Shown piece by piece: positions 13,479-16,593 of a stretch of 64,000 bases of DNA (position 1 is the first letter of the stretch; each line of letters starts with the position of its first letter). Under the pieces are notes generated by a model, which worked only from the letters and a program-made list of their open reading frames with translations, did no database searches and was not told the origin of the DNA. Location: positions 496,001 through 560,000 of the forward strand of contig NZ_NNRM01000017.1 in assembly GCF_002252525.1 (NCBI RefSeq), given 5' to 3'. The translations under genes and the position numbers were made by a program. The stretch comes from Brucella pseudogrignonensis. Its GTDB lineage: Bacteria; Pseudomonadota; Alphaproteobacteria; Rhizobiales; Rhizobiaceae.

Positions 13479-13624
13479 GGGTTGCTCATTGTGTCAGCGC
13501 TGACGTCATTGCAGCCATGCAGTTTATGCACTTCTCAAAACGATTAAAAAGACGGAAGCTTCATATTGGGAGGAAGGTAAAAAGCTCAGCGCTTAGAAGG
13601 TGCTGAATATAAGGGGATACCACA

Positions 13625-13774
13625 ATGAACCACCTCCGTACCCAGTTTTCCCGTTGGATGCAGTATCGCGAAAATCTGCGCGAGTTGAGCGGTTGCACTG
13701 ACCGCGAGCTTTATGATCTCGGTCTGACGCGAGATGACATTCATCGCGTAGCCCGTGAAGCAGCTTTCGCCTGA
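13625..13774 (+). CDS. DUF1127 (YjiS-like) mini-protein
   Basis: A 49-residue Arg-rich protein beginning MNHLRTQFSRWM and carrying the DUF1127 core LRELSGCTDRELYDLGL followed by TRDDIHRVAREAAFA. AAGGGG at about 13611-13616 is a fair ribosome-binding site. Members of this family are widespread in alphaproteobacteria; one, CcaF1 of Rhodobacter, binds RNA and acts in maturation of small RNAs that carry CCUCCUCCC loops, while others in Agrobacterium affect phosphate and carbon metabolism. An RNA of that loop type lies 2.6 kb downstream (16310), which makes the pairing worth noting. A 9-bp hairpin overlaps its stop codon. Confidence 0.9.
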   Translation: MNHLRTQFSRWMQYRENLRELSGCTDRELYDLGLTRDDIHRVAREAAFA

Positions 13775-13804: not shown

Positions 13805-13990
13805 TCAAACTTCGCCCGGCTTTTTAAAGCGGATGTGAATGTCGTCGCCTGCAAGATCAAAACCGGCATAGTTGCGCTGAAAGGCGATAAGGGCATCATT
13901 TACGCCCTTTGAATAATCGTCGTCATGCACTTCGACGTGATGCCGGTAAATGATGCGATCGTCTTTGTAGAATATAACCTGACCTTCCAT
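13805..13990 (-). CDS. Small hypothetical protein
   Basis: A 61-residue protein without signal peptide or membrane segment, with an acidic His-containing middle (YRHHVEVHDDDYSKG) and a basic end. It is not assigned to any family I know. It is probably real because a strong GAGGAGG ribosome-binding site (read on the minus strand, 13996-14002) stands at good distance from the ATG and the frame is compact. It converges on the DUF1127 gene with 30 bp between stops. Confidence 0.65.
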   Translation of the reverse strand: MEGQVIFYKDDRIIYRHHVEVHDDDYSKGVNDALIAFQRNYAGFDLAGDDIHIRFKKPGEV

Positions 13991-15069: not shown

Positions 15070-15483
15070 ATGACCATGACCACCCATAACCTGATGATCC
15101 GCTTTCGCTATGCGCTGCACAACAGCCGTCTGATGCAGATTGCGACCCTGTTCGGCTTCTGGCTGGCAGGTGAGGGTTTTGTCCGCCTGGTTGGACTGCC
15201 GCTACCCGGTGGTATTGTCGGCATGGCGCTGGTTCTGGCGCTGCTCTTAAGTGGTCGCATCAGCCTGTTCAGCATGAAGCGTGGCGCGGAATGGTTTCTG
15301 GCGGAAATGCTTTTGTTCTTTGTGCCTGCGGTTCTCGCCGTTCTTGAGCATCAGGAGCTGCTCGGAATGCTCGGGGTGAAGATCATGGCTGTTATTTTGG
15401 TTGGCACGCTGACTGTGATGACAGTGACAGCACTTACTGTTGATATGTGCTATCGCCTGAGTGTGCGCTATGCCGCTAAGTAA
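15070..15483 (+). CDS. lrgA: CidA/LrgA family membrane protein
   Basis: A 137-residue inner-membrane protein with about four hydrophobic helices and the CidA/LrgA signature GLPLPGGIVGMALVLALL. LrgA/CidA proteins are holin-like and act with LrgB/CidB in murein hydrolase control or, by newer evidence, in pyruvate uptake. The next gene overlaps by 14 bp, as in other lrgAB operons. The divergent LysR gene with its paired sites probably controls it. Two in-frame ATGs lie at 15070 and 15076; the first is given. Confidence 0.9.
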   Translation: MTMTTHNLMIRFRYALHNSRLMQIATLFGFWLAGEGFVRLVGLPLPGGIVGMALVLALLLSGRISLFSMKRGAEWFLAEMLLFFVPAVLAVLEHQELLGMLGVKIMAVILVGTLTVMTVTALTVDMCYRLSVRYAAK

Positions 15484-16165
15484 TCCCTATGTGGCGATGC
15501 TGTTTTGGTCAGCGGCCACAATCCTCCTTTACCTGGCAGCAAAGCGCGTCTACCGCCGCTTTCCAATGTGGTGGCTGACACCGCTTGCCGTTACACCATT
15601 GCTGCTGATGGCGCTTCTCATTGGCATGAATGAAAATTATCGCAGCTACTTTGGCGCAACACATTGGCTTGTGGCTTTACTTGGCCCTGCGACCGTAGCC
15701 TTTGCCATTCCGATCTATCAGCAACGCGCAACCATTCGTCGGTACTGGCCTGTTTTGCTGGTCGGTGTGGTGATGGGCAGTTCGTCGGCGATGCTCTCCG
15801 CATGGGGGCTGGCGCACCTTCTTGGCCTCAATGATGCGATCAGCCTCAGTCTGATGCCGCGCTCGATGAGTACGCCTTTTGCCATGACGGTGTCCGGCGA
15901 TATTGGCGGCACGCCTGACCTGACGGCAATCTTTGTGGTCATCACCGGCGTTTTTGGTGCAGCTCTGGGCGAACTCATGCTCAACTGGCTGCCATTGCGC
16001 TCGACGCTCGCACGCGGCGCGCTGTTCGGCATGGGCGCGCATGGTGCAGGCGTCGCCAAGGCGCACCAGATTGGCAGAGAAGAAGGTTCGATCGCTGGCC
16101 TCGTGATGGTGCTTGTCGGACTGGTCAATGTTCTGGCTGCGCCTTTCATTGCCCATCTTCTTTGA
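15470..16165 (+). CDS. lrgB: LrgB family membrane protein
   Basis: A 231-residue protein with about seven membrane helices and the LrgB marks SLMPRSMSTPFAM, GGTPDLTAIFVVITG and MGAHGAGVAKA. Partner of LrgA in a putative pore or pyruvate transport system. The frame is open to a GTG at 15461, but the ATG at 15470 gives a more usual N-terminus; either way it overlaps lrgA, so translation is coupled. Confidence 0.92.
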   Translation: MPLSNPYVAMLFWSAATILLYLAAKRVYRRFPMWWLTPLAVTPLLLMALLIGMNENYRSYFGATHWLVALLGPATVAFAIPIYQQRATIRRYWPVLLVGVVMGSSSAMLSAWGLAHLLGLNDAISLSLMPRSMSTPFAMTVSGDIGGTPDLTAIFVVITGVFGAALGELMLNWLPLRSTLARGALFGMGAHGAGVAKAHQIGREEGSIAGLVMVLVGLVNVLAAPFIAHLL

Positions 16166-16263
16166 ATCATTGTTTTAGCAGCATATTTTTCTACAAATGC
16201 TTATTTAATGAGCGGAACTCTTATATTCACATTTCTGCAACAAACTTAAGCATCGGCGTATTT

Positions 16264-16278
16264 GCATAACTGTTATGC
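16264..16278. promoter_or_regulatory. 15-bp palindrome upstream of the small RNA
   Basis: GCATAAC-T-GTTATGC is a perfect 7-bp inverted repeat about 45 bp before the likely 5' end of the small RNA. It suits a dimeric regulator near the promoter. No regulator is identified. Confidence 0.5.
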
Positions 16279-16309
16279 GTTATTGGTCGTTGTTGAATAA
16301 AGAGGCTCA

Positions 16310-16430
16310 AGGTAAACATTGCTCATCGGGTTCACTCCTCCTCCCAGAACCCGATGACGAATACGGCACTCCTCCTCCCAGCCGTATTCAAGATCAGGCC
16401 GCGCATCCTCCTCCCGCGCGGCCTTTTTCT
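16310..16430 (+). ncRNA. alpha-r14-type small RNA with three anti-Shine-Dalgarno hairpins
   Basis: Three consecutive hairpins are seen. Hairpin 1 has arms at 16323-16333 and 16347-16357. Hairpin 2 has arms at 16359-16367 and 16381-16389. Both display the identical 13-nt loop ACTCCTCCTCCCA. Hairpin 3 (16396-16404 with 16416-16424) has loop ATCCTCCTCCC and is followed by TTTTTCTTTTTC, so it is also the terminator. This is the layout of the alpha-r14 family (NfeR1/Smr14C2 of Sinorhizobium), trans-acting RNAs whose CU-rich loops pair with ribosome-binding sites; Rhodobacter CcsR RNAs share the loop motif. The 5' end is my estimate from hairpin 1 and could lie some bases either way. No convincing protein frame covers it. 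Confidence 0.88.
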
Positions 16431-16593
16431 TTTTCTAATCTCCCAAAAACACATTCTGATCTGTTAACAGTGCGTCGCCGCATAGCCCCATGGGCATTTG
16501 AGCCGATGTAAACTATCTCTCGGGCAAGTTCACATTTGCGGTGAGTGCCTCTGTCTGAGAGACTTGCCGCCACAAAAGCGGGAGATCGCAATC

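What the first reader, a model, noticed from the sequence alone, without database searches (positions are those of the whole stretch)
16310..16430. Small RNA with three hairpins that each present a CUCCUCCC anti-Shine-Dalgarno loop
Three hairpins in a row have different stems, yet hairpins 1 and 2 share the same 13-nt loop and hairpin 3 a trimmed form, ending in a U-rich terminator. Strong loop conservation over unrelated stems means selection on the loop for pairing. This matches the alpha-r14/NfeR1 family and the loop motif of Rhodobacter CcsR RNAs. The targets in this organism are unknown; genes here with GGAGGAG-like ribosome-binding sites (gcl, hyi, xdhB, the gene at 13805) are candidates.
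Basis: partly seen in the sequence, partly recalled or inferred. Interest (0 to 1): 0.8.

Follow-up and report, generated by a model that had tools for sequence, protein, structure and literature searches.

The report
Known ar14 three-hairpin regulatory RNA
This stretch encodes a small regulatory RNA of a known alphaproteobacterial family (ar14/NfeR1) whose three loops look like the ribosome's own mRNA-binding tail and probably switch off transporter and sugar-metabolism genes; the family is known, while its shared promoter signal and likely targets here are modest additions.

Summary
Rfam ar14 (RF02344) matches window 16318-16429 (+) end to end at 87.3 bits (cut-off 58.8). Three hairpins fold far better than shuffles (z -9.2), with loops of 13, 13 and 11 nt holding CUCCUCCC. 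The genome, an Ochrobactrum-type Brucella, has seven ar14 copies. This one, downstream of lrgAB, is kept in 34 of 35 genus genomes. CTCCTCCTCCCA occurs 14 times in the genome, always inside ar14 copies.

One correction: among orthologues the stems are nearly as fixed as the loops (stems 2 and 3 99-100% identical, lrgB third codon positions 52%). Stems differ between hairpins and paralogues.

Additions: a conserved dyad (16263-16279) before this and three other copies; looser versions precede the three copies that follow DUF1127 genes, and two of three AbcR genes. This suggests LsrB/VtlR-type LysR control, as published for NfeR1; the window box alone does not match the published VtlR motif. Genes with GGGAGGAG before the start codon look enriched in transport (8 of 22 against 1 of 22), a small post-hoc test. 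No expression data were available.

The parts
16318..16429 (+). ar14 (NfeR1-family) small RNA, Rfam RF02344
   Evidence: cmscan 87.3 bits, gathering score 58.8, full model
16323..16357 (+). hairpin 1, loop ACUCCUCCUCCCA at 16334-16346
   Evidence: fold; one pair A-U in 14 and G-C in 8 of 22 distinct rows; its two outermost pairs are not formed in 9 and 13 of the 22
16359..16389 (+). hairpin 2, loop ACUCCUCCUCCCA at 16368-16380
   Evidence: fold; stem 99% identical over 23 orthologues; loop one nt longer in 11 and three longer in 1 of 24
16396..16433 (+). hairpin 3, loop AUCCUCCUCCC at 16405-16415, with U-rich tail: intrinsic terminator (inferred)
   Evidence: fold; stem 100% identical over 23 orthologues
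16263..16279 (.). conserved dyad TGCATAACTGTTATGCG, putative LsrB/VtlR-type LysR box
   Evidence: kept in orthologues (16261-16281 91% identical); a matrix of the six other copies' boxes has its best hit in the window here; same motif at -55/-58 of three further ar14 copies
16290..16319 (+). likely sigma-70 promoter (TTGTTG ... TAAACAT), start of RNA about 16318-16325
   Evidence: inference from position and from conserved CGTTG and TA columns; not found by the consensus scan
13625..13774 (+). DUF1127 small-protein gene, possibly in the same regulon
   Evidence: Pfam PF06568; CATTGCAGCCATGCA, 14 of 15 with the published VtlR motif, at 13507-13521
13566..13577 (+). TTGGGAGGAAGG in the DUF1127 leader; GGGAGGAA invariant in 22 sequences, could pair with ar14 loops
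15461..16165 (+). lrgB, the syntenic neighbour upstream (lrgA at 15070-15483)
   Evidence: Pfam LrgB and LrgA

Best explanation
It is a trans-acting, non-coding ar14 small RNA made from its own promoter. Each of its three loops presents an anti-Shine-Dalgarno sequence (CUCCUCCC). A loop pairs with extended GGGAGGAG-type ribosome-binding sites, keeps ribosomes off and lowers translation of a set of mRNAs, chiefly solute-binding proteins, other transporters and sugar-catabolism enzymes. Transcription is probably switched on by a LysR-type regulator of the LsrB/VtlR kind bound at 16263-16279. Shown here: family membership, predicted structure, exclusivity of the loop sequence, conservation, the shared upstream dyad, and a candidate target class. 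Shown by others for NfeR1 in S. meliloti: silencing through the loops, and LsrB activation. Inferred: that this copy is transcribed, that VtlR binds its box, and which mRNAs it hits.
For: Rfam ar14 at 87.3 bits. Fold z -9.2 with open loops. Seven copies in the genome. 35 of 35 genus genomes and 116 of 121 family genomes (108 over the cut-off) have ar14; 0 of 14 control genomes do. This copy with its upstream box is in 34 of 35 genus genomes. All 14 CTCCTCCTCCCA sites lie in ar14 copies, six of the seven. GGGAGGAG-N3-9-ATG genes: 8 of 22 are transport proteins (5 of them solute-binding) against 1 of 22 with an AAGGAGAA site, Fisher p 0.02 two-sided. For one such solute-binding gene, TGGGAGGAG is kept in 22 of 24 sequences of 94% identity or more, own genome included. 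NfeR1 mechanism and LsrB binding: PMC10746234 (abstract, passages, section 5).
Against: No expression data. The target test is small and was devised after seeing the list; the motif defines the set, so low pairing energy in it is circular. Solute-binding proteins alone, 5 of 22 against 1 of 22, are not significant (p 0.19), and if the outer-membrane protein L197 in the control counts as transport (8 against 2) p is 0.07. Covariation is thin: two pairs with two-sided change, a number that 315 of 500 shuffles reach, although cells with such change and the covariation score exceed all shuffles. The window box matches the published VtlR 15-mer at only 10 of 15, chance level (776 of 3000 random stretches do as well), and its half-site spacing differs from NfeR1's TGCA-N6-GCAT.
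Confidence: 0.85

Rival explanations
1. It is only the 3' untranslated region and terminator of the lrgAB transcript, with no role of its own.
For: It starts about 150 nt downstream of the lrgB stop on the same strand, and hairpin 3 ends in a U tract.
Against: The gap to lrgB is poorly conserved (50% identity) but holds a conserved dyad (91%) just before the RNA. Three other copies sit at other loci with the same dyad at nearly the same distance (-55 or -58). Two more hairpins than a terminator needs, each with nearly the same loop.
Confidence: 0.06
2. It is a general ribosome decoy or translation damper: the loops mimic the 16S anti-SD and pair with any Shine-Dalgarno sequence.
For: The loops contain CCUCC, as the 16S tail does (recalled); a canonical SD still pairs at -10.5 kcal/mol.
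Against: Pairing is much stronger with GGGAGGAG sites, and these genes look enriched in transport functions. NfeR1 silences chosen mRNAs in S. meliloti (PMC10746234, passages).
Confidence: 0.06
3. It mainly binds a protein, for example a DUF1127 RNA-binding protein, through its fixed stems, as a sponge or for processing.
For: Orthologous stems 2 and 3 are as invariant as the loops; three of seven copies lie directly after DUF1127 genes; CcaF1, a DUF1127 protein, binds RNA in Rhodobacter (PMC10253847, passages).
Against: Stems differ strongly between paralogues, so a common protein would not read their sequence; no binding data.
Confidence: 0.08

Closest known systems
ar14 family (Rfam RF02344), founding member NfeR1 of Sinorhizobium meliloti
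   Same: Three hairpins, aSD motif in every loop, terminal U tract, similar length (112 nt matched here; NfeR1 115 or 123 nt in two papers), several copies per genome, LysR-type dyad upstream
   Different: Dyad at -55 to -39 from the Rfam start rather than -72 to -60 from the mapped start, and with another spacing of half-sites; no NtrC site was looked for here; lrgAB neighbourhood; targets untested
CcsR1-4 / 'cuckoo' RNAs downstream of DUF1127 genes (CIN1 locus, Rhodobacter)
   Same: aSD loops (CcsR loop motif recalled); three of the seven copies in this genome follow a DUF1127 gene
   Different: The window copy has no DUF1127 gene directly before it; one is 2.5 kb upstream
AbcR1/AbcR2 (ar15, RF02345)
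   Same: aSD-type motifs, transporter targets, LsrB/VtlR control published; two of three AbcR genes here carry a similar box
   Different: Different Rfam family; AbcR1/2 interact with Hfq, NfeR1 is Hfq-independent (PMC8844928, PMC10746234, passages)

Membership tests
ar14 (RF02344) | covariance-model score at or above the curated cut-off | tested here: met
   87.3 against 58.8 bits, positions 1-123 of 123
ar14 (RF02344) | three hairpins with the aSD motif (CCUCCUCCC) unpaired in each loop | tested here: met
   (predicted structure)
ar14 (RF02344) | stems variable between members, loops ultraconserved | tested here: met
   met between the seven paralogues for stems; loops are trimmed or altered in three of them, C14, C42 (48814) and C36. 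Between orthologues the stems are nearly fixed too
ar14 (RF02344) | sigma-70 promoter CTTAGAC-N17-CTATAT with an upstream LysR box | tested here: inconclusive
   a dyad is conserved; the consensus promoter scan found no site
ar14 (RF02344) | Hfq-independent silencing of mRNAs through the loops | not testable with these tools
   needs an experiment; published for NfeR1
CcsR / CIN1 locus | co-transcribed with a DUF1127 gene directly upstream | tested here: not met
   upstream gene is lrgB; three other copies of this genome do lie directly after DUF1127 genes

The most novel reading that the evidence does not exclude
In this genus one LysR-type regulator (VtlR/LsrB) controls a whole anti-Shine-Dalgarno RNA regulon: stand-alone ar14 RNAs, ar14 RNAs carried behind DUF1127 genes, AbcR, and DUF1127 genes whose own leaders carry an invariant ar14-pairing site. 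The VtlR-regulated 'DUF1127 genes' of Brucella would then be, at least in part, carriers of ar14 RNAs. In addition, the invariant stems of this copy would carry a second, sequence-specific function.
Probability: 0.3. Interest if true: 0.5.

Novelty: new member of a known kind. Interest (0 to 1): 0.3.

Why it matters
It places a genus-wide ar14 copy and six paralogues of one genome into a testable circuit: LysR-type regulator, a family of aSD RNAs, transport and sugar genes. If VtlR drives the ar14 RNAs, the vtlR phenotype, which overexpression of AbcR2 and of three DUF1127 genes did not reverse (PMC12595884, passages), has a further candidate cause. The RNA kind and its way of acting are already known.

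Tried and rejected
In-window targets: ranked 94 start regions (frames of 100 aa or more with a GGAG-like site) by duplex energy with the loop; gcl, hyi and xdhB, and separately the 13805 ORF, fall between a canonical SD and the GGGAGGAG genes, so I do not support them.

A 12-nt perfect match between a loop of the C36 copy (L007) and the leader of the window's DUF1127 gene looked striking. The loop variant TTCCTCCCA was found in 2 of 46 ar14 clusters examined, both of this genome, so it is not shown to be conserved; low-scoring orthologues of the C36 copy may be missing from that sample. Only the 7-8 nt core could be a general pairing site.

A published-motif test of the window box was negative: 10 of 15 to the VtlR 15-mer is chance. 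The link to VtlR rests on the other copies (12 of 15 for three of them), on AbcR, and on analogy to NfeR1. The three DUF1127-side boxes were picked as best match in 520 nt; the C36 one is weak (10 window positions score as high in the leave-one-out test). The DUF1127 box of the window ranks only seventh in the window with the ar14 matrix. NCBIfam named no equivalog for the LysR gene over its cut-off among the 25 rows shown, so it is called VtlR-like from its place after trxB only.

Rows dropped: of 27 GGGAGGAG hits, five with reading frames under 60 aa, one of them inside an ar14 copy; of the 30 control loci fetched out of 44 hits, six short and two duplicates. In one search the script picked the neighbouring gene for L170; I used the gene and left L170 out of the energy list. 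Of the loci, the six more distant or partial ones (L237-L242) were not counted; L237 (77% identity) lacks the site. Control pattern AAGGAGGT gave 11 hits against 9 backwards and was not used.

Papers not held, hence not read: Reinkensmeier 2015, del Val 2012 (the first id was a wrong guess), Grutzner 2021. Searches for an ar14 report naming this locus: (listings), in an open-licence library only. DUF1127 with NfeR1: no paper. A Brucella sRNA review and a Brucella sRNA-regulator paper had no hit for ar14 or NfeR.

Full report
What is there. The loops are 13, 13 and 11 nt and each holds CUCCUCCC. The predicted energy is -51 kcal/mol against -23.2 +/- 3.0 for shuffles. cmscan of the whole window against Rfam 15 gives one match over its cut-off: ar14, RF02344, 16318-16429, 87.3 bits.

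Where it is. The neighbours are lrgA and lrgB upstream and a glyoxalase/esterase-like gene downstream. A named-genome search with LrgB returned 49 loci, the nearest B. grignonensis and B. pituitosa (95% protein identity). A loop-motif cluster follows lrgB in 23 of the 49; these records are titled Brucella, Ochrobactrum or, in three cases, Rhizobiales bacterium. It is absent from the other 26, among them Mesorhizobium, Paramesorhizobium and B. endophytica. The species of the window is not determined. The genome has seven ar14 copies. All 35 genus genomes and 116 of 121 sampled family genomes have ar14, 108 of the latter over the cut-off; none of 14 control genomes does. A DNA search with 16255-16432 finds this particular copy nearly full length in 34 of 35 genus genomes at 81-100% identity; the one without is 72% complete.

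Loop and stem. The 12-mer CTCCTCCTCCCA occurs 14 times in 5.53 Mb, every time in an ar14 copy; six of the seven copies have it. In 24 orthologous sequences (window and 23 relatives; 22 distinct) all three loops keep CUCCUCCC; loop 2 is one nt longer in 11 and three longer in one, loop 1 one longer in two, loop 3 one shorter in one. In hairpins 2 and 3, 17 of 18 pairs never vary. Hairpin 1 has two pairs with a change on both sides, one of them A-U to G-C in 8 rows, and its two outermost pairs are unpaired in 9 and 13 of 22 rows. Against shuffles the covariation score (0 of 500 reach it) and cells with two-sided change (0 of 500) stand out, the number of such pairs (315 of 500) does not. Identity to the window over the 23 relatives, insertions not counted: loops 99.6-100%, stem 2 99%, stem 3 100%, stem 1 87%, against 52% at third codon positions of the last 104 lrgB codons and 50% in the gap after lrgB. 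So both stems and loops are constrained within this copy. Stems differ between hairpins and between the seven paralogues, as the literature says of the family (PMC10746234, PMC7143759, PMC3927594: passages). Why stems 2 and 3 are frozen is not explained.

Upstream signal. A dyad, TGCATAACTG(T/A)TATGC(G/A), at 16263-16279 is largely kept in the orthologues (91% identity). TGCATAACNGNNNTGCA with at most one mismatch has 12 places in the genome; four begin 55 or 58 nt before the Rfam start of ar14 copies and one lies before a DUF1127 gene followed by ar14; the Rfam scan saw no ar14 in the loci of the other seven. Three copies (C14, C42 at 48814, C36) follow DUF1127 genes, the known CIN1 arrangement (PMC10253847, passage); 26 of 46 non-lrgB clusters looked at in the genus do so, this genome's six included (not a random sample). 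A matrix of the boxes of the six other copies finds the window box as the best of 63,984 window positions. A matrix of all seven finds similar boxes before two of three AbcR genes, which were not used to build it. The genome has a trxB-LysR pair, the published order of trxB-vtlR (PMC7486931, passages). LsrB activates NfeR1 through a T-N11-A box (PMC10746234, abstract and section 5), and VtlR activates abcR2 and three DUF1127 genes in Brucella (PMC12595884, passages). Against this, the window box itself is no better than chance against the published VtlR 15-mer. VtlR/LsrB control is therefore likely by analogy, not shown.

Targets. Genes with GGGAGGAG 3-9 nt before ATG: 27 hits, 22 with frames of 60 aa or more. 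Eight are transport proteins, five of them solute-binding proteins; some others are sugar or alcohol enzymes, and several are unrelated, such as Cox11, a GntR regulator and a UreG-like GTPase. Of 22 genes with AAGGAGAA, one is a transport protein. Fisher p 0.021; solute-binding alone p 0.19; p 0.07 if an outer-membrane protein in the control is counted as transport. For the RbsB-like gene L167, TGGGAGGAG is kept in 22 of 24 sequences of 94% identity or more; the other two keep TGGGAGGA. TGGGAGGAG-N3-9-ATG has 376 hits against 17 for the pattern read backwards in 35 genomes, part of which simply reflects Shine-Dalgarno sequences. This fits NfeR1's known targets, periplasmic components of ABC transporters (PMC8844928, passages).

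A neighbour worth noting. The window's DUF1127 gene (13625-13774) has CATTGCAGCCATGCA upstream, 14 of 15 with the VtlR motif, and TTGGGAGGAAGG in its leader. A DUF1127 gene was found at this place in 21 of 24 lrgB loci checked. GGGAGGAA is in all 21 and the window; a VtlR-like 15-mer (third and last base free) is in 11 of the 21, and the others keep most of its core. The distance from GGGAGGAA to the start codon varies. TGGGAGGA occurs nowhere else in the window except as the complement of the RNA's loops. It may be a pairing site, or an element of the start of transcription; I cannot tell.

Verdict. A member of a known family, acting most likely as known for NfeR1. What is added here is the genus-wide conservation of this copy, the fixed stems, the shared upstream dyad and a transport-rich set of candidate targets.

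Noticed in passing
window 13625-13774 (+), box 13507-13521, leader site 13566-13577: DUF1127 gene with a near-exact VtlR motif and a GGGAGGAA in its leader that is invariant in 21 lrgB-linked relatives.
   Followed up: partly
window 16359-16424: Stems of hairpins 2 and 3 are essentially invariant across the relatives aligned, although structure alone would allow compensatory change.
   Followed up: partly
L247:15022-16917 (G000 C49): trxB followed by a LysR gene, the published trxB-vtlR order, with a box-like site (TCCAGAGCAGCCATGCA) at 15995 just before the LysR gene: possible autoregulation.
   Followed up: no
L127:1840-1929 (+): Glycine riboswitch near the DUF1127-linked ar14 copy of contig C42.
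   Followed up: no
G011:C44:231332-232162, G018:C4:189199-190031, G033:C71:183309-184141, G002:C2:1477799-1478625, G009:C2:255132-255957, G034:C2:1855581-1856412, G029:C20:96436-97243: Two ar14 copies with 5' ends about 0.6 kb apart in divergent orientation in at least seven genus genomes (capped list).
   Followed up: no
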